Assembly (NCBI GenBank): GCA_020849275.1
Contig: JADLGO010000014.1
Span: forward strand, 1-64,000
Length of the DNA stretch: 64,000 nucleotides
Reading direction: 5' to 3'
DNA from: Chthonomonadales bacterium
GTDB taxonomy: Bacteria; Armatimonadota; Chthonomonadetes; Chthonomonadales; CAJBBX01
Within the stretch, counting starts at the first letter, position 1, and each line of letters opens with the position of its first letter. The position numbers were made by a program, and so were the translations under genes. Of the stretch, positions 35,439-52,271 are shown piece by piece. The notes under the pieces are model-generated. The model was not told the origin of the DNA. It did not search any database and saw only the letters and a list, made by a program, of their open reading frames with translations.

Positions 35439-35449
35439 CTCGGTCTCCT

Positions 35450-37640: not shown

Positions 37641-38603
37641 TCATCGCGGCGCCGCGGCGGTAGCCGCCACCTCGCCGCGGGCGGCCTCCGCCCAGTCCGG
37701 GTAGCGCGCCTCGATGGCCTCCAGCGCCATCGAGGCGGCGTCCACGCCGCCGGCCGCGAGGCTCACACGCAGAAGCTCCATCAGCGCCTCGGGGCTCTCG
37801 CGCACCGTGAGCGCGCGTTCCACGGCGTCGGCGGCGTCCACTAGCCGACCCGACAGGCGGAGCGAGAGCGCCAGAAGCAGCCACGGGCCATCCTGCGCGG
37901 GCGCCGCCGCCGCGGCGTGCGCCGCCACGCAGACCGCCTCGTCGAACCTGCCGGCGGCCACCGCCTCGCGCACCTCGCCGAGCGCGTCGGTTGCCGCCGG
38001 CCTGACTGCCTCGGGCTTGCGCGCGGCCACGAAGATGTCCTGCCAGCCGGTGGGCTCGTGGCCGCGCTCCCCGACGACCATGCCGATGTCGGCCAGCACC
38101 CGCTCCAGAAGCTCCAGTGGGTAGGGCCGCACGTGCGTGTGGTCGAGCCAGAAGCCGCCGCCGCGCACCTGGTCGTTGGCCCAGTTGGGCGTCCGCACCA
38201 CGAGGAGCCCGCCGGGCTCCAGGGCGCCCGCGCAGGCCTCCAGGAGCGCCACCGCCGCCGGCCCGTCCATGTGCTCGACCACGTGGCCGAGATGGATGCC
38301 GCCCCAGGGACCGCCCAGGCCAGCGCGATCTCGAGCGTCGCCGACGTCGGCGCTGTGCCCGCGCGCACGGCAGCGCGCCACCATATCGGCGTCCAGATCG
38401 ATGCCATGTGCCTCGACGCCGCGCTCGCGCAACAGGTCAAGAAACAGGCCGGGGCCGCAGCCCACGTCCAGCACGCGGCCGCGGCCAGCGAACATGTCGG
38501 CGTACGGAGCCATCCACTGCCGCAGCGAATCCTCCCGTCCCTCGGTGTGGTAGAGGCTGAAGCGCTGGCCTGCGTGGGACGCCTGCGTGGGGGCCTGGCT
38601 CAT
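37641..38603 (-). CDS. SAM-dependent methyltransferase with helical C-terminus
   Basis: This is a class I methyltransferase of 320 residues. The SAM-binding motif VLDVGCGPGLFLDLL lies near residue 45, the acidic motif HGIDLDADMV follows, and HVVEHMDGPAAV is the family's post-motif histidine region. Residues about 215-315 are Ala-rich helical repeats (TPR-like), as in its neighbours. It probably methylates a sugar or chain-end group of the surface glycan. The start at 38603 is chosen because GAGAGGAG lies eight bases upstream. An ATG nine codons earlier lacks a site. Confidence 0.82.
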   Translation of the reverse strand: MSQAPTQASHAGQRFSLYHTEGREDSLRQWMAPYADMFAGRGRVLDVGCGPGLFLDLLRERGVEAHGIDLDADMVARCRARGHSADVGDARDRAGLGGPWGGIHLGHVVEHMDGPAAVALLEACAGALEPGGLLVVRTPNWANDQVRGGGFWLDHTHVRPYPLELLERVLADIGMVVGERGHEPTGWQDIFVAARKPEAVRPAATDALGEVREAVAAGRFDEAVCVAAHAAAAAPAQDGPWLLLALSLRLSGRLVDAADAVERALTVRESPEALMELLRVSLAAGGVDAASMALEAIEARYPDWAEAARGEVAATAAAPR

Positions 38604-38647
38604 TGGTTGCACTCCTCTCGGGCGGCTCACTCGACCACCGCGGCGCG

Positions 38648-40402
38648 TTACGCGGCCCGGAGGCCCGTCAGCGCGCCGGCGTGGGTGGGGTCGGCGGCGA
38701 GCGCCGCGGCGTACAGGCGCCTGGCGTCTTCCGTAAGGCCCAGGTCGTCCAGGCCGGCCGCCGCCTCGCGAAGCCTGTCGGGATCGCCGGGCCGCGCGCG
38801 CACCGCGTCGAGCAGCGCCGCGACGCGCATCTCGGCGAAGAACCGGTCCTCGTCCGCGGTCGTGCGGGCGCGCTCTTCCGCCGTGGGCGGAGGAGAGGCA
38901 GGCCCGCGCCCGAGCACGAAGGCTGCCGCGCGGTCCAGGTCGGCGTCGCGCCCCGGCAGCAGTTCGTCGGAGCTGGTGAACGTGAAGCCGGCCAGCGTGT
39001 AGCTCTCCGAGGGGACGCGCACCTGTCGGATCGGCACGCTGGCCGTGCGAAAGAACCGGTACAAGTATCGGTACGCGAGGCGGCTCGCCTCACGGGATCG
39101 CGGCATCGCCATCGCCAACTCGAGCTCGGCGCCCGGCCGGGCGGGGTCATCGGGCTCCAGCGTGAAGCCCGCGCCCCGATACATCCCCCCGCCCGCGTGC
39201 GCCACGGGCAGACCCGCGCACGCCATCTCGAGCCCGATGGTCGAGGCGTAGACGAGTCCCGCGGTCGCGCAGTCGACCAGGGCGTACGTGTTCACGGGCT
39301 CGTGGGGCAGCACGCAGAACCCATTCGGCGGCAGGCCGGCGCGGAACGCCTCGAGGCGGGGCCGTACCTCCGTGGCGTAGGCGGGGTCGCCGGCGGCTGA
39401 TGGATGGAAGCGGATGACGAGCACGTACTCCGGGCGCGCGGCGAACCACTCGATGGCCGAGGCCATCCAGGCATCCTGCGAGACGGTGGGCGCCAGGTCG
39501 ACGAGCGACGGCTCATGGTCGCACGATGTGCAGAGCAGCGCCATCGGGCGGTCGCCTGGAAGCCCGAGGGCCGCCATCGCCGCGGCGCGGTCCTCCGGCC
39601 ACGGGTTGAAGCCGAACCAGCCGGTGTTCTTCCCCTTGCGCCGGGCGGCAAGGATCGCTTCGGCGTCGCGCAACTCCTGCGCCGCCAGCGGCACGGCGCG
39701 CCAGGCGCTCCAGAAGCTGTCCAGCCGCGCGCGCTCCCACACCGGGCCGCCCTCGTGGAACGTGACCGCGTTGTCGACCATCGCGCGCTCGTGGGTGACC
39801 ACGCGCACACCGCGCGCGCGCAGTGCCTCCAGCACGGGCCGATGGAGCGAGAAGGAGCCGTTCAGCAGAACGGCGGTCGTCGGCAGGAACTCGTTCGCGA
39901 TGCGCTCGACGCCCGTGACGGCGATGGCGGCTGAGACGAGGTTGTCGAGGTAGACCCGCCGGACCTCGGGATCCCGCGTGTCGAGGTCGCGCCGACGGCA
40001 GTAGCCCACTGTGCCCGCGAACACCCATTCGCCAAGGGGCATCCCGTTCCACGTCGCGGCGCGAAGCTCAGCCGGAGGCAATTCCCTCGCCCAGGCGCGG
40101 ATCGCCTCCCTCTCCCCGGCCTCGACACGATCGGACGCGAACGCGTGGGCGAGCGCCAGGCCCTCCATCACGCGGACGGAGACCGAGCGGCACCGGGCAC
40201 AGACATCGGAGGGACGGCCGGTGCGCCGGGGCACCAGGTCGCAGTCCGGCAGGCCCCCACAGTTGACGAAGAGCGCCTCCGCGCCGCGCAATTGCGCCGC
40301 GAAGGCCAGCGTGGCCTCCCAGAACGTGTGCGGCCACCAGGAAACGAACGGGGTGAAGAACAGGATGCGCTCCACGGCCTTCCCCTCCACGGCGCCGCTC
40401 AT
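38648..40402 (-). CDS. Putative surface-polysaccharide biosynthesis protein
   Basis: The protein has 584 residues and no signal or membrane segment. The N-terminus has VNCGGLPDCDL and DVCARCRSVS, possibly a metal-binding Cys cluster. The central part (about 290-470) resembles the second half of capsule-synthesis or CDP-glycerol-transferase-like GT-B folds, with VLVIRFHPS and STIGLEMACAGLPVAHAG. The end (about 545-580) is a TPR-like helix pair. No defined family was recognised; glycosyl- or phosphosugar-transfer is likely from fold and context. The ATG overlaps the upstream methyltransferase stop (ATGA). The same frame is open much further upstream but then overlaps that gene with Arg-rich, unlikely sequence. 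Confidence 0.65.
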   Translation of the reverse strand: MSGAVEGKAVERILFFTPFVSWWPHTFWEATLAFAAQLRGAEALFVNCGGLPDCDLVPRRTGRPSDVCARCRSVSVRVMEGLALAHAFASDRVEAGEREAIRAWARELPPAELRAATWNGMPLGEWVFAGTVGYCRRRDLDTRDPEVRRVYLDNLVSAAIAVTGVERIANEFLPTTAVLLNGSFSLHRPVLEALRARGVRVVTHERAMVDNAVTFHEGGPVWERARLDSFWSAWRAVPLAAQELRDAEAILAARRKGKNTGWFGFNPWPEDRAAAMAALGLPGDRPMALLCTSCDHEPSLVDLAPTVSQDAWMASAIEWFAARPEYVLVIRFHPSAAGDPAYATEVRPRLEAFRAGLPPNGFCVLPHEPVNTYALVDCATAGLVYASTIGLEMACAGLPVAHAGGGMYRGAGFTLEPDDPARPGAELELAMAMPRSREASRLAYRYLYRFFRTASVPIRQVRVPSESYTLAGFTFTSSDELLPGRDADLDRAAAFVLGRGPASPPPTAEERARTTADEDRFFAEMRVAALLDAVRARPGDPDRLREAAAGLDDLGLTEDARRLYAAALAADPTHAGALTGLRAA

Positions 40403-41463
40403 TGGTGGGCTCCCTGGAGGCGTCGCGCCAGCACTCGCAGGTCCCCGCAGCCGAACTTCTCGCGACCCCAGCGGTCCTTCGCGATGACGTCGTGGTCGAA
40501 GTCGGTTGGGTAGCCGCCCACCAGACGGCGGAAGCAGCCGAACCCGGCGGCGCGCAGCCGCTCCTCTACCTCCTCCAGGGTCGAGTGACCGTAGACGGCG
40601 TGCAGGCTGTCGCCCAGGTGATAGCGCTTCCCGGCGCCGAGGTTCAGGTACCGCAGGTAGTCGAGGGTCAGGTCGGTCGGCACGTTGGCGAGGATCTGAA
40701 CCGAGGCGTCCCAGAGGTCGTGACTGATTGCGCCGGCGCCGTCGGTGTAGTACCATAGCCAGCCGCCGGGGCGCACGACGCGCGCGACCTCGCTCAGCGC
40801 CGCCGGCTCGTCCTCCAGATGGTGGAAGACGCCATTCTGCACGGCCAGGTCGAAGCCTGCGTCCGGCTCGCCGACATCGTACACGGTCGCCACACGGAAG
40901 CGCAGGCGGTCCGGGCTCACGCCGAGGCGATCGCGCGCGGCCTCCGCATACGCGACGCTCTCCTCCCCATAGTCGACGCCGACGACGAGCTCGGCCCCCG
41001 CGGCCAGAAGCGCGTGGGCGAAGTTGCCGTGGCCGCAGCCGAAGTCGATGCAGCGCATGCCACGCGCCCAACCGTCGGCGAGGCCGTTGACCCGCAACCG
41101 GTGCACGTAGCGGTCGATTCGCGCACGGTACTCGTCCGGCGAGAACTTGACCCAGAGCTTCTGGAACAGGTCGTGGTGGGATTCCTCCATCGCCGCCGGC
41201 CGATCGCGCTCCAGAGGCTCGCGGCCCTCCTCGACGAACGCGACCTCAGACCAGGCCCGCAGGTGGGCGCTCGCCTCGCGGACGAGGTTCGCAACCAGCG
41301 GGTACGGATGCGTCGGCAGGTCGCGATCGAGCATGATCCGCTCGTAGCGCATGTTGAGGAGGACGAGCGCGCTGACCCTGGCCAGCGACAGCATGCGCGT
41401 GGTCGGAAGGCTCTCGGCCAGCGCCTTGAGCGCCTCCAGCTCCGCCAGGTAGACCTTCTCCAT
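40399..41463 (-). CDS. SAM-dependent methyltransferase
   Basis: This class I methyltransferase has 354 residues. A helical N-terminal domain (about 1-130) precedes the Rossmann core with MRCIDFGCGHGNFAHALL (about 138) and VVGVDYGEESV. FDLAVQNGVFHHLEDEPA is motif IV, and the C-terminal part contains YLNLGAGKRYHLGDSLHAVYGHST-type sequence found in glycan-cluster methyltransferases. It is coupled on both sides: its ATG overlaps the upstream stop by one base (TGATG) and its stop overlaps the next ATG by four. The substrate is presumably an activated sugar or glycan. Confidence 0.8.
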   Translation of the reverse strand: MEKVYLAELEALKALAESLPTTRMLSLARVSALVLLNMRYERIMLDRDLPTHPYPLVANLVREASAHLRAWSEVAFVEEGREPLERDRPAAMEESHHDLFQKLWVKFSPDEYRARIDRYVHRLRVNGLADGWARGMRCIDFGCGHGNFAHALLAAGAELVVGVDYGEESVAYAEAARDRLGVSPDRLRFRVATVYDVGEPDAGFDLAVQNGVFHHLEDEPAALSEVARVVRPGGWLWYYTDGAGAISHDLWDASVQILANVPTDLTLDYLRYLNLGAGKRYHLGDSLHAVYGHSTLEEVEERLRAAGFGCFRRLVGGYPTDFDHDVIAKDRWGREKFGCGDLRVLARRLQGAHQ

Positions 41464-43421
41464 CAGCTCGCGCCCTCCACCGCGACCTCCAGGATCTCGA
41501 ACGTCAGCAGCATCCCGGTGCCCACCACGAGTTGGTGCGGGTCCTCCTCCGTGGCCATCGTCCACGCGCGGAGCGGGTCGCCCGAGGGCGGCAGCGCAAA
41601 CGGCATGCGGAAGGGGTGCCACGACCATCGGCAGCGCGGCAACAGCCGCCGCAAGCACCGCTCGTAGGTCTCGCGGCCGCGCGCGTTGAAGGCGACCTCC
41701 CACGCGCTGAGCGGAGTGGCGGACCGGCGGTGCCTCAGCAGCACGTCGACGCCGTGCGGGTTCACGGTGTCGAGGATCAGCAGTCGCCCCCCGGGCGCGA
41801 CGAGGCGCAGCAGGTTGGTCAGCGGCACCCCCAGGTCGTCGAAGAGGCTCATCGTGCCCAGACAGGTGCACACGTCGAAGCGGCCTGGTGGCGCGAACGC
41901 CGGGTCTGTTATAGAGCCGCGCACGAACCGCGCGGCGGGCACGGCAGTGCGGGCCGCGTCCAACAGCGCGGGCGCCACGTCGATCCCGAGCGCGGCGCTC
42001 AGGCGCAAGCGCTGCGCGGCGTGATGCAGGAACGCTCCCGACGCGCACCCAACGTCCACCAATGACAGCGGGCGATCCCCGGCGCGAGCGGCGATCCGGT
42101 CGAGCACACGGACGAAGGCCGCCTTGGGCTCACGGTACTGCTGCTCGTCGGCGAGGTAGACGGGGTCGTCAACCCGGTACCGCGCCTCGATCCGGGAGCG
42201 AGGCGCCCCGGACGCTCCCGCCGGAAGCGCGGAGCCGGCCGGGCTCAGGAAGGCGAGGAGCGTGCGCTTGCCGCTGGGCTCGCGCAGCCGCTCCAGGCGC
42301 GCCACGTCGAGGCCGGCTCGCATGGCCGTCAGGGAGAGAGAGGCCGCGCTGAACGCGTGTCGATGGTCGAGCGTGAACTCCTCGCGCTCGAAGCCCTCGT
42401 GCGCGGCGGTCTCACCATCCGGGACCTCCAAGTAGAGGAATCCCCCTTCGGCCACCAGATCCCCGGCCCGCCGGAGCATGGCGATGGGATCGGCCACATG
42501 CTCCAGCACGCGGTTAAGAGTGACGACGGCAAACGGGCCGCCGGGCTCGGAGGCCAACAAGTCTCCGCACAGGGCCTCCACCCCGACGACCGCGCGTGCG
42601 TGCTCGGCCGCGCGGTCGTCCGGATCGAGCGCCAGGCACCGCCATCCGGCCGCGCGCATTCCATGCAGAAACACGCACAGCCCGGAGCCGACGTCCAGAA
42701 CCGACGGCCCGACGGTGCCGTCACCGGCTCCGCACTCGGCGGCGAAGGCGAGCACGCGCCGAACGCGCCCGGCGTTGTCGGATCGCTCCGGAGGGAGCGC
42801 CACGATGCGCTCGAAGGCGGCCTGGATGCCAGCCGCGTCGCCGTAGTTCGCGTCGACGTAGCCGGCCGCGTAGAGCGCCGCCTCGTCGAGCTCGTGGACG
42901 GCGAGGAAGTGCCCGCACGCGCGGCACCTCAGCAGGTCGCGGGGATAGGGGGAGCCAACGCACCCGGGCAGCGGCCGCTCGCACGCCGGCGGCGCCTCGT
43001 AGCGCCATGCCAACTCAAGGTCCGTCGCGCCGCAGACGCAGGCCCGCTCGGCGCCGGTTCGGCCGTCGATGCGGGCTAGGTCCGCGGTCTCATCGAGCCA
43101 CGCGACGACGCGCATGTGCTCGGCCGCCAGGTACGCGTCGAGGTCGGCGAGGCGCGCGCGCTCGGCAAGCAGGACGTAGTGGCGGCCCTGCGCGTTGCGC
43201 ACAACGGCGGTCCGCCATCCCTGGGCCGCGAGCCGGCCATCGGTCGACGGCGTGGCGTAGAAGCCCCATGCCTTGCGCGCCACGTCATACTCGGCGCCGC
43301 CCGGCGTGACGAACGTGACCTGCTCGTCCGGCTCGGCCTCCATCTGGCCGCAGTCGCTCATCGAGACAGCGCGCGCTCCCACCGGGAAGCGCCGCGGCGG
43401 CTCTACAGGATGGAACCTCAC
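41463..43421 (-). CDS. Tandem methyltransferase with zinc-binding head
   Basis: The protein has 652 residues and two class I methyltransferase domains. After an N-terminal region there is a Cys cluster (CVCG about residue 127 and CRACG about 165), like the zinc-binding head of sugar C-methyltransferases. Domain 1 has VLDVGSGLCVFLHGM (about 235) and LNRVLEHVADPI. Domain 2 has LVDVGCASGAFLHHAA (about 455) and FDVCTCLGTMSLFDDLG. Two different methyl transfers, or one active and one structural domain, are possible. The GTG start at 43421 overlaps the upstream stop (GTGA) and has GGAGG in front. A longer frame from 43463 would lie inside the previous gene. Confidence 0.82.
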   Translation of the reverse strand: MRFHPVEPPRRFPVGARAVSMSDCGQMEAEPDEQVTFVTPGGAEYDVARKAWGFYATPSTDGRLAAQGWRTAVVRNAQGRHYVLLAERARLADLDAYLAAEHMRVVAWLDETADLARIDGRTGAERACVCGATDLELAWRYEAPPACERPLPGCVGSPYPRDLLRCRACGHFLAVHELDEAALYAAGYVDANYGDAAGIQAAFERIVALPPERSDNAGRVRRVLAFAAECGAGDGTVGPSVLDVGSGLCVFLHGMRAAGWRCLALDPDDRAAEHARAVVGVEALCGDLLASEPGGPFAVVTLNRVLEHVADPIAMLRRAGDLVAEGGFLYLEVPDGETAAHEGFEREEFTLDHRHAFSAASLSLTAMRAGLDVARLERLREPSGKRTLLAFLSPAGSALPAGASGAPRSRIEARYRVDDPVYLADEQQYREPKAAFVRVLDRIAARAGDRPLSLVDVGCASGAFLHHAAQRLRLSAALGIDVAPALLDAARTAVPAARFVRGSITDPAFAPPGRFDVCTCLGTMSLFDDLGVPLTNLLRLVAPGGRLLILDTVNPHGVDVLLRHRRSATPLSAWEVAFNARGRETYERCLRRLLPRCRWSWHPFRMPFALPPSGDPLRAWTMATEEDPHQLVVGTGMLLTFEILEVAVEGAS

Positions 43422-44536
43422 TGCCACCTCCAGTCGGGCACGAGGAAGTCGTCGATCACCCACCGACCCTCGCGGCGCGTCCAGACGCCGGGATTGCGGA
43501 AGCTGTCGGCGATCTCGCCGAAGCGCGCGCGCGACATGCCGACGAACTCGCAGAAGCGCGCGATGTCGCGGCGCGGAGTCTGGTCGCCGGACCGTCGCAC
43601 CACGTCGATGGCCTCGTCGCGCGACATGCGGCCGTGCCGGATCTCCAGCGAGAGGTTATCGAAGAGGCGCGTGATCCCGAACTTGTGCCACTTCAGGTGG
43701 TGGTGGACCGATATGAGGTGGTCGTCGACGTCGGCGAACGCGTAGTAGCCGGTCCGTGGCCCCGAGGCGCGCTCACGGAAGCCGTGCCGTGCCGCGACGG
43801 CGGCGGTGTGCGCCGGGTCCCAGGGGAAGTAGTAGCCAAGGAAGACGGCGTTGACGCCCGCGGCCTCCATCTCGGCATCGGAGGGACCACGGTAGGCGAC
43901 GAGGTCTCGCTCGCTCAACGCCTCGCCGACCCAGTCGCGCCACGTCGTTCCGTGCGTCACCCCGAAGCGCCGCAGCCACGCAGCGTCAAGGCGGAAGCCC
44001 GTGCGCTCCTCCTCCGATCCGCCATACTCGAACGCCGAGTTCTCGCCCCAGACGACCAGCGGGACTCGGAAGCTCACCGCGACGGCGAGCGGGATGGCGA
44101 AGAGCGCCATGTGCATCGGGATGGCGGTGGAGCCGAGGCGCTCATAGGCCGCCGCCATGAAGCGACGCTCAACATCGGGGCGGATGCGGTAGTCGATGTG
44201 GTCGACCCCGATCTCGACGAGGCTGCGCAGGTTGCGTCGGCCGAGCTCGGTGCGCGCCGGCGGGCACCAGGTGACGGCCAGCGGACGAAGGCCGTGCTCC
44301 AGGCAGGTAACGACCTGCCAGGTGCTGTCCTTGCCGCCGCTCACCGGGACCACGCAGTCGTAGCCGCCCGCGCGGACTCGCGCCGCGTGGGCAACCTCCG
44401 CGAACGCCTCGGCGCGGCGCCCCCAGTCGGTGTTGGCCCGCGACTCGAAGGCCCGACAGGCGTTGCAGACGCCCTCGCCATCGAGCGTGATGCTCGGGCG
44501 CGTGTCCGGGGTGATGCAGCGGCGACAATACCTCAT
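43418..44536 (-). CDS. N-acetyl sugar amidotransferase (PseA/WbpG/LegG-like)
   Basis: This ATP pyrophosphatase (372 residues) is of the family that converts an acetamido group of a sugar to an acetamidino group, as in pseudaminic and legionaminic acid derivatives and Pseudomonas B-band O antigen (WbpG). The PP-loop VSGGKDSTWQV lies near residue 65. The zinc-binding Cys clusters CRRCITPDTRP at the N-terminus and CNAC near 24 are intact. The family uses ammonia from a glutaminase (WbpH/HisH-like). No HisH homologue is in this window; the adjacent asparagine-synthase-like gene might supply ammonia, but that is an inference. Start and stop overlap neighbours by four bases each. Confidence 0.9.
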   Translation of the reverse strand: MRYCRRCITPDTRPSITLDGEGVCNACRAFESRANTDWGRRAEAFAEVAHAARVRAGGYDCVVPVSGGKDSTWQVVTCLEHGLRPLAVTWCPPARTELGRRNLRSLVEIGVDHIDYRIRPDVERRFMAAAYERLGSTAIPMHMALFAIPLAVAVSFRVPLVVWGENSAFEYGGSEEERTGFRLDAAWLRRFGVTHGTTWRDWVGEALSERDLVAYRGPSDAEMEAAGVNAVFLGYYFPWDPAHTAAVAARHGFRERASGPRTGYYAFADVDDHLISVHHHLKWHKFGITRLFDNLSLEIRHGRMSRDEAIDVVRRSGDQTPRRDIARFCEFVGMSRARFGEIADSFRNPGVWTRREGRWVIDDFLVPDWRWQ

Positions 44537-46365
44537 GCGCCGAACTCCTCTAGAAAGAGCTTCAAGCTCACGACGCTGAACAGGAACTTGCTGCGGCTGT
44601 TGGTGAGGTCTCGCTCCGTCAGGAGCTCCTCGATGGCGTCGCGCCGGACCAGGTCGAGCACGGGCGATTCCGCCAGCAGCGCCGCGCGAACCCGCGGGTC
44701 GTCGACGGCAAGGAACGAGTGGATCGGCGCGTTGAAGCCAACCTTGCGTCGGTTATCAACGATGGCGTCCGGCGCGATGCCGCGCACCGCCTCGCGGAGC
44801 ACCGCCTTGGCGTAGCCGTCGCGCATCAGGTGCCGGGTCGGGATCGTGGCGCAGAACTCAAACAGCGCGCGATCGAGGAACGGCGAGCGGTTCTCGACGG
44901 AGTGGTACATCGCATTGAGGTCGTCCTCATGCAGAATGACCGGCACGTTCTCGTGGAACATCTCGTTGAGCATGCGGTTGCGCAGGAGGTCGCCGCTGTA
45001 GCGCTCCTCGGCGAACTCCTCCCGCCAGGGCTGCGTCAGGGCCGCGGCGAACCACTCCGCATCCAGATAGATGTGACCGCGAAAGCCAGGGTCCCGCACA
45101 AACCGGTCCGGGTCAGCGAGGAACGGGTTGCGCACCATGGGCCGTACGTGCTCGCACCAGGCCGCCAGCGCCGGACCGTAGACCTCCGGCCTGGCGCGCA
45201 CCTCGCGCAGGTAGGCCAGATGGTGGTCGTAGTAGCCGCTGAACAGCTCGTCGGCCGCGGTGCCGCTGATCGCGATGCGGCAGCCCGCGCGCGCCACCGC
45301 CTCCATCAGGAGCCAGTGGGCATAGTACGTGACCGTGTAGACCGGAGCATCGTGATAGCGGACGAGCTCGCGCAGCCCATCGAGGAAGCCATCCGTGCGC
45401 ACGGGCACCGATGTGTGCTGGACGCCAAGCTCGCGCACGGATGCCTCCACCATCGCCTGCTCCTCATAGCGGGCGTCCGTGTTCACCACAGTGAACCCGC
45501 GCGCGTCAGAGCCGAACACGCGGCGCGCGATGGCGATGAGCGCATTGGAGTCGACACCGCCGCTCATGCAGAAGGCCAGCGGCACGTCGGCGCGAAGCCG
45601 AAGCTCGACGGAACGGATGAGCCGCTCCCGCGCCCCCGCGACGGCATCCACAAACGACATCGACTCGGCGGGCGCGTGGCGAGGCGCCCAGTAGCGGCCG
45701 GTCCTCTCCCTGCCGTCGGGGTCCACGCGCAGCCAGGACGCCGCGGGCAACTCGAGCACGCCCTCGAAGAAGGTGTCGGAGCCTTTGTACAGCGCCTTGT
45801 AGCCGTTCACCAGGAAGCGGCGCGCCTGGCGCAGGTTGGGCCGCAGTGGCCGGCCGAGCAGCGCCGCGATCAGCTTCGCTTCCGACGCGAAGTAGAGACC
45901 GCCGCCGTCACGGTACAGGTAGAGCGGCTTCTCGCCGAAACGGTCGCGGCAGAGCGTTACCGAGCCGTCCCGAGCATCGTGCAGTGCGAACGCCCACATC
46001 CCCTCAAGGTCATCCAGCGCCTCGATACCGTCCATGGCGACGGATGCCGCGAGCACCTCCGTGTCCGATGTCGTGCCGAACGTGACGCCACGCCGGGCCA
46101 GCCGGTCGCGCGCCTCAACGTAATTGTAGAGCTCGCCGTTCAGCGCGATCGTTACGGCACCGGCCGTCAGGGGCTGATGGGACCGAGCATCCAGGTCGAT
46201 GATGCTGAGGCGGCTGTGCAGCAGGCACAGCGCGCGCCCGCTGGGCAGCGTCCAGCGCCGTGAGGCGGCATGGTCGGGGCCGCGCCGGCCCATCCGGGCC
46301 AGGCAACGGCGGACGCGCTCGTCGCACGGCGGCGTCGGCCCGACGTACCCGGCTATGCCGCACAT
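44533..46365 (-). CDS. asnB: Glutamine-dependent asparagine synthase-like amidotransferase
   Basis: The enzyme has 610 residues. The glutaminase domain starts with MCGIAGYVG, so Cys2 becomes the N-terminal nucleophile; SRLSIIDL, NGELYNY and SDTEV complete the site. The synthase domain has the ATP pyrophosphatase motif FCMSGGVDSNALIAI (about 270) and SGTAADELFSGYYDHH. This is the asn_synth_AEB family. In glycan clusters such proteins amidate uronic acids or other carboxyls instead of making asparagine. The start is fixed by the essential Cys2; an in-frame ATG eight codons earlier would bury it. The stop overlaps the sugar amidotransferase gene. Confidence 0.9.
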   Translation of the reverse strand: MCGIAGYVGPTPPCDERVRRCLARMGRRGPDHAASRRWTLPSGRALCLLHSRLSIIDLDARSHQPLTAGAVTIALNGELYNYVEARDRLARRGVTFGTTSDTEVLAASVAMDGIEALDDLEGMWAFALHDARDGSVTLCRDRFGEKPLYLYRDGGGLYFASEAKLIAALLGRPLRPNLRQARRFLVNGYKALYKGSDTFFEGVLELPAASWLRVDPDGRERTGRYWAPRHAPAESMSFVDAVAGARERLIRSVELRLRADVPLAFCMSGGVDSNALIAIARRVFGSDARGFTVVNTDARYEEQAMVEASVRELGVQHTSVPVRTDGFLDGLRELVRYHDAPVYTVTYYAHWLLMEAVARAGCRIAISGTAADELFSGYYDHHLAYLREVRARPEVYGPALAAWCEHVRPMVRNPFLADPDRFVRDPGFRGHIYLDAEWFAAALTQPWREEFAEERYSGDLLRNRMLNEMFHENVPVILHEDDLNAMYHSVENRSPFLDRALFEFCATIPTRHLMRDGYAKAVLREAVRGIAPDAIVDNRRKVGFNAPIHSFLAVDDPRVRAALLAESPVLDLVRRDAIEELLTERDLTNSRSKFLFSVVSLKLFLEEFGA

Positions 46366-46399
46366 GGCCGCCCATCCTCCAACGCCCATGTGCTCGCTC

Positions 46400-47422
46400 T
46401 CAGGCGCATCGCTCCAGCAACTCCTGGCCGGCCTCGAACGGCGTGCCCGCCACCATGGGCCGCGCGAGGCGCGCGCCGATGACGCCCGCCTCCTCGCCGG
46501 GAGAAAGCCCGCCGCCTGGTCGGAGCCAGACCACGTCCTCCGCGCGCACCAGGTGCCCGGCCGGCAGGTCACCGGAGGCCGCGATCGACCGCCGCATCGC
46601 AACGCGGTTCCCCTCCTCGCACGGCATCACGCGCTTGTGGCCATCGCCCAGCATCGCCTCGAGATCGCGGATCGCGCGGACCATCTGGCGCAGCTCTGCC
46701 GGATCCGCGGACAGACGGTGGTCGCGGAAATCGGACAGTCCCTTGTCGAGCGTGAAGTGCTTCTCCACGATGCGCGCTCCAAGCGCCACGGAGGCCAGCA
46801 CCGCCGCGGTGCCCAGGCAGTGGTCCGAGTAGCCCGCCGTCAGGCCGTAACGGCGACGCAGCGAGCCGATGGCCAGCAGATTGGCCTCCTCGGCGGGCAC
46901 CGGGTAACTGCTGACGCAGTGCAGCAGCGCCACGCGCTCGCCCGCCGGCCATGCCCCGTGCGCCGAAAGGCAGCGTACCGCGCGGTCCACGGTGGCCAGA
47001 TCGGCCAGGCCCGTGGAGAGCAGGACCGGTAGCCCGGTTCCGGCCACCCGCGCGAGGAGCGGCTCAAAGTCGTTGTCGCCCGAGGCCACCTTGAGGGCCG
47101 CGGCGATCGGCGCAAGGACGTCGACGCTGGGCAGGTCGAGCGGCGTAGAGATGAACAGCACGCCCTCCTCGCGAGCGACGGCAGCGAGTTCGGCGAAGGC
47201 AGCCGGGGGCAGCTCGAAGGAGTGGAGGCGCGCGAAACGCGCGGCGTCGAGCGGCGAGGCGAAGAGCTCGACTCGGAAGGTCTGAAACTTCACCGCGTCC
47301 GCGCCGGCGGCCGCTGCCTCGCGCACCATCCGCCGCGCGCGCTCCAGACTCCCCTCGTGGTTGTTGCCGATCTCGGCCACTACGAGCACGCCCTCGCTCG
47401 TGTCCCGGCACCCTATGCGCAT
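46400..47422 (-). CDS. neuB: NeuB-family nonulosonic acid synthase
   Basis: This enzyme condenses phosphoenolpyruvate with a six-carbon amino sugar to give a nine-carbon 2-keto-3-deoxy acid (sialic, legionaminic or pseudaminic type). It has 340 residues, the usual length. The TIM barrel (about 1-270) has VVAEIGNNHEGS, ADAVKFQTF, LHCVSSYP and the metal-binding VEKHFTLDK. The C-terminal SAF/antifreeze-like domain (about 280-340, MRRSIAASGDLPAGH) covers the active site. The ATG at 47422 overlaps the end of the formyltransferase gene by ten bases. Which sugar it uses cannot be told from sequence alone. Confidence 0.92.
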   Translation of the reverse strand: MRIGCRDTSEGVLVVAEIGNNHEGSLERARRMVREAAAAGADAVKFQTFRVELFASPLDAARFARLHSFELPPAAFAELAAVAREEGVLFISTPLDLPSVDVLAPIAAALKVASGDNDFEPLLARVAGTGLPVLLSTGLADLATVDRAVRCLSAHGAWPAGERVALLHCVSSYPVPAEEANLLAIGSLRRRYGLTAGYSDHCLGTAAVLASVALGARIVEKHFTLDKGLSDFRDHRLSADPAELRQMVRAIRDLEAMLGDGHKRVMPCEEGNRVAMRRSIAASGDLPAGHLVRAEDVVWLRPGGGLSPGEEAGVIGARLARPMVAGTPFEAGQELLERCA

Positions 47423-48360
47423 CGCGCCATCACCCCCATGAGCGCCGCCGCGGCCGCGCCGCGCACCGTCGCCAGTGTCTCGTAGCGCGCGATCGCCGGG
47501 AGGGCGTCGGCGCCATCGTCGAAGCGAGCCTCGGTGACCCACAGGCAGCGGTCGCTGGCGCACACGAGCACCCCGGTCGCGTTGGCCAGGTAGACCCGCC
47601 CGGGCTCGCCCAGCCGCCGATCACGCGCCATGCGCGTGCGAACCAGAGAGACGCGGCGACCCCGCCAGTACGTGAACGCGCACGGAAACGGACGGGTGAG
47701 GGCCCGCACGCGGTTGTGCGCCTCCCTGGCGGTTAACTGGTCCCAGAGGATCAGCCCATCCTCCGGGAAGCGCAGCGGGTAGTAGGCCGCGCGAGCGGAA
47801 TCCTGGCGCCGACCGGAGACCGGGCCCGCCTCGATGCGGCGGACAAGCCCGGCCAGCATCTCCGCGAAAGCCGGATCCGCGCGCTCGGTCAACTCCGCGA
47901 TGGTCTCGTCGGACCCGACCTCGATCTCCGTCTCCGCAAGCACCTCCCCGGTGTCGACGCCCTCGTCGACGGCGATGATGCTCAGGCCGACCGCCGAGTC
48001 ACCGTTGAGGATCGCCCAGTTGAGAGGCGAGGACCCGCGATATGCCGGCAGCCTGCCCGCGTGCAGGTTCACGCACCCGCGCGGAGCCAGGTCGATGACC
48101 TCGCGCGGGAGGATCTGCCCATAGCCGGCGAGCACGAGCAGGTCGGGCGCGGTCGAGCGCAGCCCGGCGATGGAGGCCGTGTCGCCGATCCAGGCCGGGC
48201 GAAACAGCGGCGCGCCGAGGTCGCGGGCTACCTGCGCCACGACCTCCGCCGAGTGGCCGACGGGGTGCGTCACGACGCCAACTACCGTGTGCCCCTCGGC
48301 GGCCAGCCGCTCCAGGCAGAGGGCGCCGCGCCTCTTGTTCCCTGCCAGCAGGATCCTCAT
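47413..48360 (-). CDS. Sugar N-formyltransferase (methionyl-tRNA formyltransferase-like fold)
   Basis: The 315-residue protein has the formyltransferase Rossmann domain: LVLAGYGQILP, then NLHAGRLPAYRGSSPLNW with the catalytic Asn-His pair, and EGVDTGEVL with the catalytic Asp. A C-terminal OB-like domain follows (about 215-300). It uses N10-formyltetrahydrofolate. Its place in the glycan operon points to N-formylation of an amino sugar rather than initiator tRNA, as in ArnA, VioF or FdtF. It could formylate the amine installed by the DegT enzyme. The gene lies 14 bases behind the epimerase gene. Confidence 0.85.
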   Translation of the reverse strand: MRILLAGNKRRGALCLERLAAEGHTVVGVVTHPVGHSAEVVAQVARDLGAPLFRPAWIGDTASIAGLRSTAPDLLVLAGYGQILPREVIDLAPRGCVNLHAGRLPAYRGSSPLNWAILNGDSAVGLSIIAVDEGVDTGEVLAETEIEVGSDETIAELTERADPAFAEMLAGLVRRIEAGPVSGRRQDSARAAYYPLRFPEDGLILWDQLTAREAHNRVRALTRPFPCAFTYWRGRRVSLVRTRMARDRRLGEPGRVYLANATGVLVCASDRCLWVTEARFDDGADALPAIARYETLATVRGAAAAALMGVMARCA

Positions 48361-48374
48361 GGTCGCGCTCCCTC

Positions 48375-49415
48375 TCAGGCAGCCAGCCGCGCGAGGGCGC
48401 GCGGCTGGGGGATCAGGTCGTGGTACCACTGAACGTAGCGCGGGAAGCCGGCCTCAATGGGGACCGTCGGGCGGTAGCCCAGCAAGTCCCGAGCGCGGTC
48501 GATGCACAGGGTCCCGCGCAAAGGCATCAGGCGGTCCCGCGGCACGTACTCGACGGCGGCGCCCGGAAACTCAGCCCGCACCACGCCGACCAGGTCGTTG
48601 ATGGAGCGCGACTGGCCGTAGGTGATGTTGAAGACCTGGTTGCGCGCGCTCGGGTGCGTCAGCACGAGCTCGATGCCTGCGACCAGGTCGTCGATGTAGG
48701 TGAAGTCCAGTCGCTCGGTGCCGTCGCCGTCCACGCGCAGCGCCCCTCCCTGGATCGCGCTCTCGACAAAGACCTGCCCCACCCGCCGGCTCACGCAGCG
48801 CGGACCGTAGAGCGCCGACGGGCGGATGATCGTGTACGGCAGGTCGAACACCTGCTGGTAGGCGATCACCATCTTCTCGCCGGCCACCTTGAGGGCGCCG
48901 TAGATCCCCATCGGCTCGAGCGGGTGCTCCTCGGTGACCTCGCAAGCGCGGAAGGTGCCGTAGGCCATACTCGACGACAGGTAGACGAAGTGCTCAAGCT
49001 GGCCGCGCGCCGCGTCGAGCGCGTTCTCCAGAGTCCGCAGGCTGTGGTCAAAGGTGCTGTAGGGGTCCTTGTTGGAGTGCCCGGCGTGCGCGACCGCGGC
49101 CAGGTGAACGATGGCGTGAGGCTGAACGTGGTTCAGCAAGCGGGTGAGTGCGTGGTAGTCGCGCGCGTCCTGGATGTGCAGTGGCACTCCGGCCTCGCGC
49201 AACAGGTCCAGGCGCTGGTTGATGATCCGCAGGTAGAGGTCGCGGTCGTGGAACTCGTTGGAGGCCGAGGCGAAGGTCAGCAGGTTGTTCACCTGGAGCC
49301 CATCGATGATCTCGACATGGGCTCCCTGACTGGCCAGCGATAGCGCCAGGTTGTGCCCGATGAAGCCGGCGCCCCCGATGAGCGCCACCCGGCGCCCCTG
49401 CAAGCTCTGCATCAT
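48375..49415 (-). CDS. NAD-dependent sugar epimerase/dehydratase (extended SDR)
   Basis: This extended short-chain dehydrogenase (346 residues) probably acts on a nucleotide-activated sugar. The NAD-binding GGAGFIG lies near residue 14. The catalytic triad is visible as YLSSSMAYG and YGALKVAGEK (Tyr-x3-Lys). The C-terminus (about 260-345) is of the UDP-glucose-4-epimerase/dehydratase kind. It could be a C4 or C2 epimerase, a 4,6-dehydratase or a reductase. Two ATGs stand in tandem at the start; the first overlaps the aminotransferase stop. Confidence 0.85.
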   Translation of the reverse strand: MMQSLQGRRVALIGGAGFIGHNLALSLASQGAHVEIIDGLQVNNLLTFASASNEFHDRDLYLRIINQRLDLLREAGVPLHIQDARDYHALTRLLNHVQPHAIVHLAAVAHAGHSNKDPYSTFDHSLRTLENALDAARGQLEHFVYLSSSMAYGTFRACEVTEEHPLEPMGIYGALKVAGEKMVIAYQQVFDLPYTIIRPSALYGPRCVSRRVGQVFVESAIQGGALRVDGDGTERLDFTYIDDLVAGIELVLTHPSARNQVFNITYGQSRSINDLVGVVRAEFPGAAVEYVPRDRLMPLRGTLCIDRARDLLGYRPTVPIEAGFPRYVQWYHDLIPQPRALARLAA

Positions 49416-50572
49416 ACCTGGACCTCCTTGACGGCCTCGCTCACCGCGTCGGCGATGCGGTCGATGCCTTCGAGCGAAACGTGCGGGGCCACCGGCAGCG
49501 CGATGGACGCGTCGCTCAGGCGTGCGGCCTCTCGGTAGGCCTCCGGATCGAGGGCATAGCGGTTACGATAGTAGTCGAGGCGCGGCACCGGGTGCGGGTA
49601 GTAGACGCTGGTCCCGATGCCGTGCGCGTTCAGCGACCGAACGATGTCATCGCGGCTCCGCGCCAGCGCGCGGCCGAGCACCAGGCTCAGGCAGTAGTGG
49701 CTGCTGGCGCAATCCGGCGACGCAGAGTCGAGCACGCGGACGCCCGGGAGGCCCTGGAGGGCGGCGCAGAGGCGCTCGAAGCGGGCCCGTCGCGCCTCCA
49801 GCATGGCTGGCACGCGCAGAAGCTGAGATCGCCCGAGCGCGGCCTGCATCTCGCCCATCCGGTAGTTCAGCCCGAGCGAGGGAACGTCGTAGGCGCCTGG
49901 AATGGACGCCGCCGATCCGCTCCGCTCGACGCCGAAGGCGCGAAGCCGCGCCACGGCCGAGGCAGTCTCCGCGTCGCGACTCACGAACATGCCGCCCTCG
50001 CCCGTGGTCATGTGCTTCACCGGGTAGAACGAGAAGCAACCGGCGTCGCCGAGCAGGCCGACGTGCGTGCCCCGCCAGCGCGAACCGACGGCCAGGGCAC
50101 AGTCCTCCACCACGGGGAGGCCGCGCCTGTGGGCGAAGCCAACGATGTCCCCCATCTCGCACGGGATGCCGACGAAGTGCACGAGCACGATGCCCCGTGT
50201 GCGCGGAGTCAATGCCCGCGCCAGCGTGTCGGCGGTGACGTTGCCCGTGCAGGGGTCGCAGTCGGCGAACACCGGGCGAGCCCCCACCCACTCCACCGCG
50301 TGCGCCGTCGCCGCGTGGGTCTGCGCGGGCACCAGCACGTCGTCGCCAGGCCCGAACCCCACGCGCAGGCAGGCCAGGTGCAGAGCCGCCATGCAGGAGC
50401 TCACCGTCACGCAGTGGGCGCCCGGCCCGAGGAAAGCGGCGAACTCCTCCTCGAAGGCCCGGCACTGCGGGCCGTGGGTCAGGATCGGCGTGTCGAGCAC
50501 GGCGGCAACCGCCGCACGGTCCTCCTCCGTGATGGAGGGGCGCCCAAACGGTATGGCGCGCGGATCGCTCAC
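49412..50572 (-). CDS. DegT/DnrJ/EryC1/StrS sugar aminotransferase
   Basis: This is a PLP-dependent enzyme (386 residues) that turns a keto-sugar nucleotide into an amino sugar, with glutamate as donor. FSFYPVKHMTTGEGG carries the PLP-binding Lys186. IPCEMGDIVGFAHRRGLPVVEDCA provides the Asp that holds the pyridine nitrogen, and LGLNYRMGEMQAALG is a family signature. The start is GTG at 50572, overlapping the oxidoreductase stop (GTGA). With the epimerase and formyltransferase it fits synthesis of an N-formylated amino sugar. Confidence 0.92.
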   Translation of the reverse strand: MSDPRAIPFGRPSITEEDRAAVAAVLDTPILTHGPQCRAFEEEFAAFLGPGAHCVTVSSCMAALHLACLRVGFGPGDDVLVPAQTHAATAHAVEWVGARPVFADCDPCTGNVTADTLARALTPRTRGIVLVHFVGIPCEMGDIVGFAHRRGLPVVEDCALAVGSRWRGTHVGLLGDAGCFSFYPVKHMTTGEGGMFVSRDAETASAVARLRAFGVERSGSAASIPGAYDVPSLGLNYRMGEMQAALGRSQLLRVPAMLEARRARFERLCAALQGLPGVRVLDSASPDCASSHYCLSLVLGRALARSRDDIVRSLNAHGIGTSVYYPHPVPRLDYYRNRYALDPEAYREAARLSDASIALPVAPHVSLEGIDRIADAVSEAVKEVQV

Positions 50573-51582
50573 GCGTAGCCGACCTCCTCATCGTGTCCAG
50601 AGCGAAGCGACTCATCGGCCGCGATGCAGGCCGCCATTACATCGAGGTCGTGCCGTGTGGCGGGGTCGGGGTCGCGGCCGGCGAGGATGGCCTCGACGAG
50701 CGGCGCGATGAGCGCTCCCTTGTGGCGCTCGCGGTCCGGCAGCTCGCGGAGCGGCGCCGCGGGGGCCGGGTCGCGCTCGCGGGAGATGCGCGCTCCGGCG
50801 TCATCGTGCACCACGGAGGCCGCAGTCCCGAAGACGCGGACGACGTGCTGATGCCGGTGGACGCAGCCGAAGTGCGCCGTGACGCGCCCAACCAGGCCCG
50901 ACGCAAAGGCGAACGTGGCCGCGACGAAGTCCGCCTGCCGAAACGCGGTTCCGCGCGTGCAGATCCCGTTGCCCACGGCGCGCACGCGCCGGGGGCGCTC
51001 GCCGCAGATCCACATCATCAGGTCCACGAGATGGACGCCGCCGCCGGCCATCACGGAGTAGCCCGGCATGTCGCCGCGCCAACCGTCGGTGATCTTGCTC
51101 AGCCGCCCGTAGAGGTAGTCGCCATCGAACGCGTAGAGCTGCCCGAGGCCGCCCGAGGCCGCCTCGTCGCGCAGCCATCGGTAGAGCGGCGCGGCGCGCA
51201 GGACGAGGTTGCTGGCGAGCCTCACTCGGCCCCCGTGCCGCCGCCACGCGTGGCGAATGCGCGCGAGCTCCGCGCCCGTCCGACACAGGGGCTTCTCCAC
51301 GAACACATGCTTGCCCGCATCCAACGCGGCCACCACCTGCTCCGCGTGCGCGTCGTCGTAGCTGGCGAGGACCACCAGGCCGATCGCGGGGTCGGCGAGC
51401 ATCTCGTCGAACGAGCGCACCGGGGGTCGGCATGGGAGCGCCGCCGCCAGCGCGTTAGCGCGCCGTGGATCGATATCGACAAGCGCCGCGAGTCGGCACG
51501 CCTCGTTCGCGACGATGGCGCGCGCGTGCTGCTCGCCTACGCCGAGACCCACGACGGCCACGGCGAGGCGCTCGCGGCTCAC
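50569..51582 (-). CDS. Gfo/Idh/MocA-family oxidoreductase
   Basis: This NAD(P)-dependent dehydrogenase has 337 residues. The nucleotide-binding AVVGLGVGEQHARAI lies at the N-terminus, and FVEKPLCRTGAEL is the family's EKP motif (catalytic Lys near residue 93). AGGGVHLVDLMMWICG provides the active-site His. Family members oxidise or reduce sugars at C3 or other positions, and in surface-glycan clusters often make the 3-keto sugar for an aminotransferase like the one encoded next. The start is GTG at 51582, overlapping the cytidylyltransferase stop (GTGA). Confidence 0.88.
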   Translation of the reverse strand: MSRERLAVAVVGLGVGEQHARAIVANEACRLAALVDIDPRRANALAAALPCRPPVRSFDEMLADPAIGLVVLASYDDAHAEQVVAALDAGKHVFVEKPLCRTGAELARIRHAWRRHGGRVRLASNLVLRAAPLYRWLRDEAASGGLGQLYAFDGDYLYGRLSKITDGWRGDMPGYSVMAGGGVHLVDLMMWICGERPRRVRAVGNGICTRGTAFRQADFVAATFAFASGLVGRVTAHFGCVHRHQHVVRVFGTAASVVHDDAGARISRERDPAPAAPLRELPDRERHKGALIAPLVEAILAGRDPDPATRHDLDVMAACIAADESLRSGHDEEVGYA

Positions 51583-52271
51583 GCCGCGCTCCGATGGCTG
51601 CTCGCAACGGCTATACGCCAGGGCAGCGGCGAAGGGAGCGCCTCGAGGCGCCGCAGGTCGTCGACGGTGTCCACGGCCAGGCTCAAGGACCCGAGAGCGG
51701 GATCGGTGGAGCGCACGCTCGCCACGCGCCACGCATCGGCGCGAGCGTAGAACCAGGCGGTCACGTGCTCGCGGTCCTCGACGCCGCGCGCCAGGCGGTC
51801 CGCGGCGCGCAGCGCGCCGGCGCGCACGCACTCCGCGTTGAGGCCCGCAGGGAACGTGCGGGGCCGCGTCGTCGTCGCTACGTCGGCGCGCACGGCGATG
51901 GCGGCGTCTCGCACGGCGCGGATTACGGCGGGCGACACCAGGGGGCTGTCGGCACAGAGCCGGACCACCCACTCGCAGGGCCAGGTATCGAGCGCGACGA
52001 CGAACCGGCCCAGAACGTCCTCAAGCGCCCCGCGGCACACCGGCACACCCAGGCTGCCGCAGTAGGCGGCCACGGGGTCGTCGGACGGCTCGCGGCTTGT
52101 CAGGACGACCGTCGCGCCCGCGCCCAGGGCGCTCTCCGCCGCCGTCACGACGTGAGCCAGCATGGGCCGGCCCCGGAAGGGCGCAAGGACCTTGCCCGGG
52201 AACCGGGCCGAGCTCATGCGGGCCTGCACGAAGGCGCGGACGCTTCTGTGGTTGGTCTCGTCGAAGTGCAT
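51579..52271 (-). CDS. SpsF-like cytidylyltransferase
   Basis: This enzyme has 230 residues. FVQARMSSARFPGKVLAPF is the nucleotide-binding start of the SpsF/acylneuraminate cytidylyltransferase family, and WVVRLCADSPLVSP carries the metal-binding Asp. It probably activates a nine-carbon or other acid sugar with CTP. It is the only candidate for a CMP-sugar synthetase next to neuB, although the classical NeuA family is longer and differs in its start. The ATG is 35 bases after the MerR gene, with no strong ribosome binding site. Confidence 0.78.
   Translation of the reverse strand: MHFDETNHRSVRAFVQARMSSARFPGKVLAPFRGRPMLAHVVTAAESALGAGATVVLTSREPSDDPVAAYCGSLGVPVCRGALEDVLGRFVVALDTWPCEWVVRLCADSPLVSPAVIRAVRDAAIAVRADVATTTRPRTFPAGLNAECVRAGALRAADRLARGVEDREHVTAWFYARADAWRVASVRSTDPALGSLSLAVDTVDDLRRLEALPSPLPWRIAVASSHRSAA

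What the first reader, a model, noticed from the sequence alone, without database searches (positions are those of the whole stretch)
43418..52271. NeuB pathway carrying formyl- and amidino-forming enzymes but no hydrolysing epimerase
NeuB, an SpsF-like cytidylyltransferase, a DegT aminotransferase, a formyltransferase and a PseA/WbpG-like amidotransferase are encoded together. This predicts a nonulosonic acid with N-formyl and/or acetamidino groups. The usual NeuC/LegG/PseG hydrolysing step, NeuA and a HisH-like ammonia source are absent here. The SpsF protein may replace NeuA and the AsnB protein may give ammonia.
Basis: inference. Interest (0 to 1): 0.6.

Follow-up and report, generated by a model that had tools for sequence, protein, structure and literature searches.

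The report
Hydrolase-free nonulosonic-acid gene cassette
This is a real operon for an unusual nine-carbon surface sugar; the enzyme that normally frees its six-carbon precursor is missing not only here but from the same operon in about 60 related loci of some fifteen phyla, so the sugar is probably made by a route that nobody has yet worked out.

Summary
Eight tightly spaced minus-strand genes (43418-52271) encode SpsF, a Gfo/Idh/MocA oxidoreductase, DegT, an extended SDR, a formyltransferase, NeuB, AsnB and WbuX. The 99.9%-complete genome has one NeuB, no NeuC, no second HisH and no NeuA-type enzyme except SpsF and KdsB. Its only PseG-like gene is unlinked and has orthologues in sister genomes without NeuB.

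The same cassette, mostly in the same order, recurs in about 60 NeuB loci of 15 named phyla, one archaeal. The formyltransferase slot usually holds a GNAT acetyltransferase, so this is the formyl version. None of 54 well-covered cassettes has NeuC or PseG within 9 kb, and 27 of 50 genomes lack both. In 19 of the other 23 the hydrolase sits beside a second, non-cassette NeuB. The SDR lacks the acid/base pair of 4,6-dehydratases and an arginine typical of nucleotide-sugar SDRs, so 'legionaminic-type' is unsupported. WbuX of this class occurs with AsnB and never with HisH (37/37), which favours AsnB as ammonia source.

Best reading: a new variant of nonulosonate biosynthesis that forms its amine by oxidation and transamination, without an NDP-sugar hydrolase. 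Product and intermediates are unknown.

The parts
51579..52271 (-). SpsF-like CMP-sugar synthetase (cytidylyltransferase), first gene
   Evidence: PF02348 66.8 bits, no NCBIfam equivalog reached; best PDB match 6oew 'Cytidylyltransferase', then KdsB; only PF02348 protein of the genome besides KdsB and GlmU
50569..51582 (-). Gfo/Idh/MocA oxidoreductase; GTG start overlaps the SpsF stop by 4 bases
   Evidence: PF01408/PF22725; EKP, H182 and D185 invariant in 43 sequences; AlphaFold pLDDT 94.3, nearest PDB folds inositol/L-glucose dehydrogenase, GenD2, KanD2
49412..50572 (-). DegT/PseC-like aminotransferase; overlaps its neighbours by 4 bases on each side
   Evidence: PF01041 347.6 bits; PseC 275 bits, below the 423.5 cut-off; nearest PDB perosamine synthase/ArnB
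48375..49415 (-). Extended SDR of a cassette-specific subfamily, 4-epimerase-like active site, no dehydratase acid/base pair
   Evidence: PF01370; 55-69% identical to 43 cassette relatives incl. an archaeal one; SSM triplet 51/54, Leu or Val at the usual Arg position 58/58; model pLDDT 88.5, nearest fold UDP-glucose 4-epimerase
47413..48360 (-). Sugar N-formyltransferase (Fmt/ArnA type, N- and C-terminal domains) in the acyltransferase slot
   Evidence: PF00551 + PF02911; NLHAGRLP...VDEGVDTG with the N, H, D catalytic residues; the same slot holds GNAT in 38 and Fmt in 11 of 53 cassettes
46400..47422 (-). NeuB-type nonulosonate synthase of the cassette class
   Evidence: PF03102 + SAF; NeuB 282 and PseI 226 bits, both below cut-off; class signature AEIGNNHEG, SGDNxF and SxFRDHQLSADP absent from NeuC/PseG-linked NeuBs; only true NeuB of the genome
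44533..46365 (-). AsnB-type glutamine-dependent amidotransferase with N-terminal Cys (MCGIAG)
   Evidence: TIGR01536 345 bits, over cut-off 267.1; present in 49 of 53 cassettes
43418..44536 (-). WbuX/PseA/WbpG-like N-acetyl sugar amidotransferase, HisH-independent class; overlaps AsnB by 4 bases
   Evidence: TIGR03573 310.7 bits, over cut-off 203.2; SGGKDS ATP loop; class A 37/37 near AsnB, 0/37 near HisH
41463..43361 (-). Double methyltransferase with an N-terminal cassette-associated domain (EPDEQVTFVTPGGAEYD...)
   Evidence: Methyltransf_23/12, two stretches; homologues follow WbuX in about 35 loci, the N-terminal domain as a separate gene in 27
37641..42048 (-). Further methyltransferases and unidentified genes of the same surface-glycan island
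   Evidence: Methyltransf families at 40399-42048 and 37641-38630; membership of the pathway is inference from neighbourhood
32043..37612 (-). Glycosyltransferases with TPR repeats (GT1/GT2), possibly the transferases of the island
   Evidence: Glyco_trans_1_2, Glyco_trans_1_4, Glycos_transf_2, TPR; role inferred

Best explanation
The operon is a complete-looking nonulosonate (NulO) pathway and one copy of a widely transferred cassette, SpsF - Gfo/Idh - DegT - SDR - N-acyltransferase - NeuB - AsnB - WbuX - methyltransferase. Proposed working: the NAD(P)-dependent Gfo/Idh enzyme and the 4-epimerase-like SDR oxidise and set the stereochemistry of a sugar hydroxyl, DegT turns the ketone into an amine, and the formyltransferase N-formylates it (most relatives N-acetylate it with a GNAT). 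NeuB condenses the six-carbon aldose with phosphoenolpyruvate, and SpsF activates the nine-carbon acid as its CMP sugar. AsnB supplies ammonia with which WbuX turns an N-acyl group into an amidine, and methyltransferases may methylate it. No NeuC/LegG/PseG hydrolase belongs to this cassette, and the intermediates before CMP activation are probably not nucleotide sugars. Shown here: gene content, synteny, absence of linked hydrolases, residue signatures. Inferred: every reaction, their order, the substrate and the product.
For: Cassette conserved in 62 NeuB loci, exact order in 36 of 53 well-covered ones, 15 named phyla. Hydrolase within 9 kb: 0 of 54 Gfo/Idh-bearing NeuBs against 15 of 23 others. 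27 of 50 cassette genomes have neither NeuC nor PseG over cut-off; in 19 of the other 23 it lies beside a second, non-cassette NeuB. SDR: acid/base positions Ser/Met instead of the Asp-Glu, Asp-Lys or Ser-Glu that PMC8987622 (Table 1) lists for dehydratases, and Leu (56) or Val (2) for the Arg seen in 11/11 ordinary SDRs. Gfo/Idh fold nearest to inositol/L-glucose dehydrogenases, GenD2 and KanD2; KanD2 and GenD2 work with a DegT enzyme to oxidise and aminate a sugar (own knowledge). NeuB class has its own active-site signature incl. an inserted residue and an extra Arg. Class-A WbuX always with AsnB, never HisH.
Against: DegT is closest to enzymes that act on nucleotide-linked 4-keto sugars (PseC, perosamine synthase, ArnB), and the SDR profile matches Pal of the B. 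thuringiensis pseudaminic pathway best among solved structures. Loss of one Arg does not prove loss of nucleotide binding. This genome has two large FlaA1/WbpM-like PF02719 proteins that could supply a 4-keto-6-deoxy sugar nucleotide in trans. The Gfo/hydrolase contrast is partly by ascertainment, since most comparison NeuBs were found through their hydrolase. Three cassette-class NeuBs have SDR + DegT but no Gfo/Idh nearby. Many relatives are incomplete MAGs.
Confidence: 0.5

Rival explanations
1. A conventional nucleotide-sugar route as in B. [quoted passage not shown]
For: DegT, acyltransferase, NeuB and SpsF correspond one-to-one to SpsC, SpsD, SpsE and SpsF (PMC7439481); the genome has two FlaA1/WbpM-like proteins; Gfo/Idh is present where the hydrolase is missing.
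Against: About 12 of 51 cassette genomes have no strong PF02719 protein; the EKP lysine and catalytic His of ordinary Gfo/Idh dehydrogenases are kept, whereas GH109 enzymes differ there as far as I recall; the role of the conserved SDR is left unexplained.
Confidence: 0.33
2. In this genome the hydrolysis is done in trans by the PseG-like protein on contig C11 (about 55.5-56.6 kb), so that the pathway is an ordinary Pse/Leg route with scattered genes.
For: PseG family 104.8 bits, with the GxGHxxR N-terminal motif of PseG.
Against: Below the curated cut-off; sits by mnmE and a GT2 gene, not with NeuB. Orthologues (40-52% identity) occur in seven same-family genomes with no NeuB and not in three that have NeuB. 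46 of 50 other cassette genomes have no PseG over cut-off.
Confidence: 0.07
3. The product is not a nine-carbon nonulosonate: this divergent NeuB condenses a different aldose and makes another ulosonic acid, which Gfo/Idh, SDR and DegT then modify, as KdnB and KdnA do for Kdo8N.
For: NeuB scores below the curated cut-offs of both NeuB and PseI and carries its own active-site signature; SpsF resembles KdsB as much as PseF; no dehydratase and no hydrolase in the cassette.
Against: All NeuB core motifs and the SAF domain are kept; DegT is nearer to NDP-sugar aminotransferases than to the Kdo8N transaminase (183 against 138 bits).
Confidence: 0.1

Closest known systems
B. subtilis Sps CMP-legionaminic acid pathway (SpsM-C-D-G-E-F; PMC7439481)
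   Same: DegT (SpsC), N-acyltransferase (SpsD), NeuB (SpsE) and the SpsF-type cytidylyltransferase; SpsF in place of NeuA.
   Different: No SpsG hydrolase and no SpsM dehydratase in the cassette; Gfo/Idh and a non-dehydratase SDR instead; formyl- instead of acetyltransferase here; AsnB, WbuX and methyltransferases added.
Pseudaminic acid pathway (PseB-C-H-G-I-F) and its Pen/Pal version in B. thuringiensis
   Same: PseC-like DegT, NeuB-family synthase, cytidylyltransferase, N-acyltransferase slot, WbuX/PseA-type amidotransferase; the SDR profile matches Pal best.
   Different: PseG missing; PseB dehydratase missing from the cassette; the SDR lacks dehydratase residues; NeuB and DegT are below the Pse cut-offs.
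Neu/Leg pathways with a hydrolysing 2-epimerase (NeuC/LegG)
   Same: NeuB condensation and CMP activation; both kinds can coexist in one genome with separate NeuBs.
   Different: No NeuC in this genome and none linked to any cassette NeuB.
PseA/WbpG/WbuX amidotransferase with HisH
   Same: TIGR03573 member over cut-off.
   Different: Partner is AsnB, not HisH; a separate sequence class.
KanD2/GenD2 (Gfo/Idh) with DegT aminotransferases, and KdnB/KdnA of Kdo8N
   Same: Oxidise-then-transaminate logic; KanD2 and GenD2 are among the nearest folds.
   Different: Those act on aminoglycosides or Kdo; here a NeuB and a CMP-sugar synthetase are in the operon. Analogy, not membership.

Membership tests
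Nonulosonate (NeuB) biosynthesis | NeuB-family synthase with PEP-condensing TIM barrel and SAF domain | tested here: met
   PF03102 224 bits + PF08666; core motifs kept in 81 sequences
Nonulosonate (NeuB) biosynthesis | CMP-nonulosonate synthetase encoded with it | tested here: met
   SpsF-like PF02348 protein as first gene; catalytic activity not tested
Pse/Leg (Sps) pathway | NDP-sugar hydrolase (PseG/SpsG or NeuC/LegG) in the pathway | tested here: not met
   None in the operon; no NeuC in the genome; only an unlinked PseG-like gene below cut-off
Pse/Leg (Sps) pathway | 4,6-dehydratase as first enzyme | tested here: not met
   Cassette SDR has SSM instead of [ST]DE, [ST]DK or [ST]SE (motif table in PMC8987622); candidate dehydratases only elsewhere in the genome
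Pse/Leg (Sps) pathway | PseC/LegC aminotransferase over the curated cut-off | tested here: not met
   PseC 275.4 of 423.5, LegC family 183.8 of 420 bits
Neu5Ac pathway (NeuABC) | NeuC and NeuA present | tested here: not met
WbuX/PseA/WbpG N-acetyl sugar amidotransferase | TIGR03573 over cut-off | tested here: met
   310.7 against 203.2 bits
WbuX/PseA/WbpG N-acetyl sugar amidotransferase | HisH-type glutaminase partner | tested here: not met
   Single HisH, next to HisA; class-A WbuX 0/37 with HisH
Conserved SpsF-Gfo-DegT-SDR-acyl-NeuB-AsnB-WbuX cassette (defined here) | Gene order and NeuB class signature | tested here: met
Formyl-bearing nonulosonate | N-formyl group in the product | not testable with these tools
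   Formyltransferase with the N/H/D catalytic residues present; the product needs mass spectrometry

The most novel reading that the evidence does not exclude
A widespread nonulosonate pathway that never uses a nucleotide-sugar precursor: Gfo/Idh, SDR and DegT oxidise and aminate a free sugar, or the nonulosonate itself after NeuB, so that neither a 4,6-dehydratase nor an NDP-sugar hydrolase is needed and CMP activation is the first nucleotide step.
Probability: 0.35. Interest if true: 0.75.

Novelty: new variant of a known kind. Interest (0 to 1): 0.55.

Why it matters
Nonulosonate structure is commonly predicted from NeuB phylogeny and from which of the NeuC, LegG or PseG genes are present. 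A cassette in some fifteen phyla that lacks all of them, and has a dedicated Gfo/Idh-SDR-DegT set, means that a common class of bacterial and archaeal acidic sugars may be mis-predicted as sialic, legionaminic or pseudaminic acid. It also gives a testable set of six enzymes, a formyl/acetyl swap at one position, and a HisH-free WbuX class with a likely ammonia donor. I found no description of this cassette in the open-access literature searched; subscription papers and preprints were not covered.

Tried and rejected
Orphan PseG-like gene as the missing hydrolase: rejected as the general answer. WecB pair as hidden NeuC: both are non-hydrolysing wecB (276-466 bits; NeuC 50-75 against a cut-off of 236). 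GNAT as a hydrolase-bearing fusion: by sequence it looks like a plain GNAT-type acetyltransferase and it is absent from the formyl cassettes (a Pfam scan of these failed, so GNAT rests on reading the sequences and on the annotation of the Azospirillum copy). SDR as 4,6-dehydratase: rejected on active-site residues. A missing 4,6-dehydratase as a universal trait of cassette genomes: not supported, most genomes, including this one, have a PF02719 protein elsewhere. AsnB as a simple HisH substitute: only partly, because it occurs with HisH-bearing WbuX (L027, L028, L065) and in eight cassettes without WbuX. Literature searches led to the Sps, Accumulibacter and dehydratase papers, not to this cassette. 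A NeuB tree separated the Gfo- and hydrolase-linked labels with 2 changes but was weakly resolved, so the number of acetyl/formyl swaps (12 at the fewest on that tree) is not relied on.
Full report
1. What is there. On the minus strand, read from 52.3 kb down to 43.4 kb, eight genes follow each other with short overlaps or gaps of at most about 35 bases: SpsF-like cytidylyltransferase, Gfo/Idh/MocA oxidoreductase, DegT aminotransferase, extended SDR, Fmt/ArnA-type formyltransferase, NeuB, AsnB, WbuX. Only AsnB and WbuX pass a curated NCBIfam cut-off; NeuB (282 of 399.65 bits), DegT (275 of 423.5) and the others stay below every named equivalog, so each belongs to a known superfamily but to no named pathway. 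A methyltransferase with two catalytic domains follows, then more methyltransferases and TPR-bearing glycosyltransferases.

2. The absences are real in this genome. The assembly is 4.80 Mb, 73 contigs, 99.9% complete. PF02350 gives two proteins, both non-hydrolysing wecB. PF03102 gives one true NeuB; the other three read as DAHP synthases. HisH is single and followed by HisA. PF02348 gives KdsB, GlmU and this SpsF. TIGR03590 gives one PseG-like protein, 104.8 bits, below cut-off, next to mnmE. Its orthologues occur in seven same-family genomes in which no NeuB was found, while three NeuB-bearing sister genomes lack it, so it most likely serves something else.

3. The cassette is widespread. 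A scan with NeuB returned 80 loci at 42-57% identity. Searching them with the window's proteins showed the same genes in the same order, SpsF-Gfo-DegT-SDR-X-NeuB-AsnB-WbuX-methyltransferase, in Elusimicrobia, Planctomycetota, Pseudomonadota, Chloroflexota, Omnitrophota, NC10, a methanogen and others. X is a GNAT-like acetyltransferase in 38 of 53 well-covered cassettes, a formyltransferase in 11 and neither in 4. The window is therefore the formyl version of a mostly acetyl cassette. The exact six-gene order occurs in 36 of 53. The SDR is 55-69% identical across this range, which speaks for horizontal transfer; in the window's own order only 6 of 31 genomes have any NeuB hit (the window's own among them) and the other five are distant (34-44%).

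4. The hydrolase is missing from the class, not just from this copy. Of NeuBs with at least 4.5 kb on both sides, 54 have Gfo/Idh nearby and none of these has NeuC or PseG within 9 kb; of 23 without Gfo/Idh, 15 have a hydrolase (most of that second group was found through its hydrolase, so the contrast is partly by construction, but the zero is not). In 50 whole genomes with the cassette, NeuC passes its cut-off in 20 and PseG in 4, together in 23 genomes, so 27 have neither. When the surroundings of those hydrolases were fetched, 19 of 23 genomes had the hydrolase within about 9 kb of a second NeuB of the other class. Incomplete MAGs cannot easily explain 27 of 50.

5. Residue-level evidence. 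The review PMC8987622 (read) lists the acid/base pairs of nucleotide-sugar dehydratases as Asp-Glu, Asp-Lys and the like behind the catalytic Ser/Thr, and none for GalE. The cassette SDR has Ser-Met there (SSM in 51 of 54) and replaces the Arg of the (T)RDFxYVDD motif, which in nucleotide-sugar SDRs contacts the diphosphate (own knowledge), by Leu (56) or Val (2); ordinary SDRs in the same loci with the motif have Arg in 11 of 11. Its model is closest to UDP-glucose 4-epimerases, its profile to Pal of the B. thuringiensis pseudaminic pathway. The Gfo/Idh model (pLDDT 94.3) is closest to inositol/L-glucose dehydrogenases, GenD2 and KanD2. Cassette NeuBs share a signature absent from hydrolase-linked NeuBs, including an inserted Phe followed by Arg (SxFRDH for GPDH) and Phe for Asn after SGD; this points to a different aldose substrate, which is inference.

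6. Amidine formation. WbuX homologues fall into two groups: those close to the window's (37 full-length) always lie near AsnB and never near HisH; the distant ones have HisH in 9 of 14 cases. AsnB is however also found in eight cassettes without WbuX, so it has some further role, for example amidation of a carboxylate (inference).

7. Mechanism. I favour oxidation (Gfo/Idh, SDR), transamination (DegT), N-formylation, NeuB condensation and CMP activation by SpsF, with no nucleotide sugar before the last step, because that accounts at once for the missing hydrolase, the missing dehydratase residues and the lost Arg. The strongest counter-argument is that DegT resembles enzymes of nucleotide-linked 4-keto sugars and that two FlaA1/WbpM-like proteins elsewhere in the genome could feed them. 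Whether the amine is made before or after NeuB cannot be decided from sequence. A C3 amine on the hexose is unlikely, since hexose C3 supplies the ring oxygen of the nonulosonate (own knowledge of the chemistry).

8. Known and new. The nearest described system is the B. subtilis sps pathway (PMC7439481), in which SpsF is the cytidylyltransferase of the CMP-legionaminate pathway; 'SpsF replaces NeuA' is therefore not new. New, as far as the searched open-access papers go, are the hydrolase-free class, its spread, the Gfo/Idh-SDR pair, the acetyl/formyl swap in one slot and the HisH-free WbuX class. A copy in a cultured organism, Azospirillum brasilense MTCC4039 plasmid p5, offers a handle for genetics, with the caution that its Gfo/Idh is annotated in two pieces and DegT is not annotated.

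Noticed in passing
window 28954-30252 (-): Nickel-pincer (LarA-like) isomerase, NCBIfam group 22, 451 bits, over cut-off, beside a DUF1559/prepilin-like gene; no homologue found in the other cassette loci.
   Followed up: partly
G000 contig C11 about 55.5-56.6 kb (L103 9028-10086): Orphan PseG-like protein directly after mnmE, conserved in most of the window's family without NeuB; likely a glycosyltransferase or another hydrolase of unknown role.
   Followed up: partly
L036 and L060, about 5-9 kb: Cassettes with a second DegT-SDR pair (and Gfo/Idh in L060) inserted before NeuB; possibly a doubly aminated product.
   Followed up: no
L056, L083 and about 15 others, after NeuB: A recurring pair of a weakly formyltransferase-like protein (about 240 aa) and a polysaccharide-deacetylase-like protein directly downstream of cassette-class NeuB (clusters 15 and 16).
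   Followed up: no
L135 (Haematobacter massiliensis plasmid): A distant SDR relative (36%) directly followed by DegT in a locus without NeuB, suggesting that SDR and DegT form an older functional pair.
   Followed up: partly
window 41463-43361, N-terminal ~110 aa: A conserved domain (EPDEQVTFVTxxGxEYDxxxKxWGFYATPSxNxRL) encoded as a separate small gene in 27 relatives and fused to the methyltransferase here; no family matched it.
   Followed up: no
contig C14 64560-65663 (L104): Transposase-like gene at the contig end just beyond the window (identified by eye).
   Followed up: no
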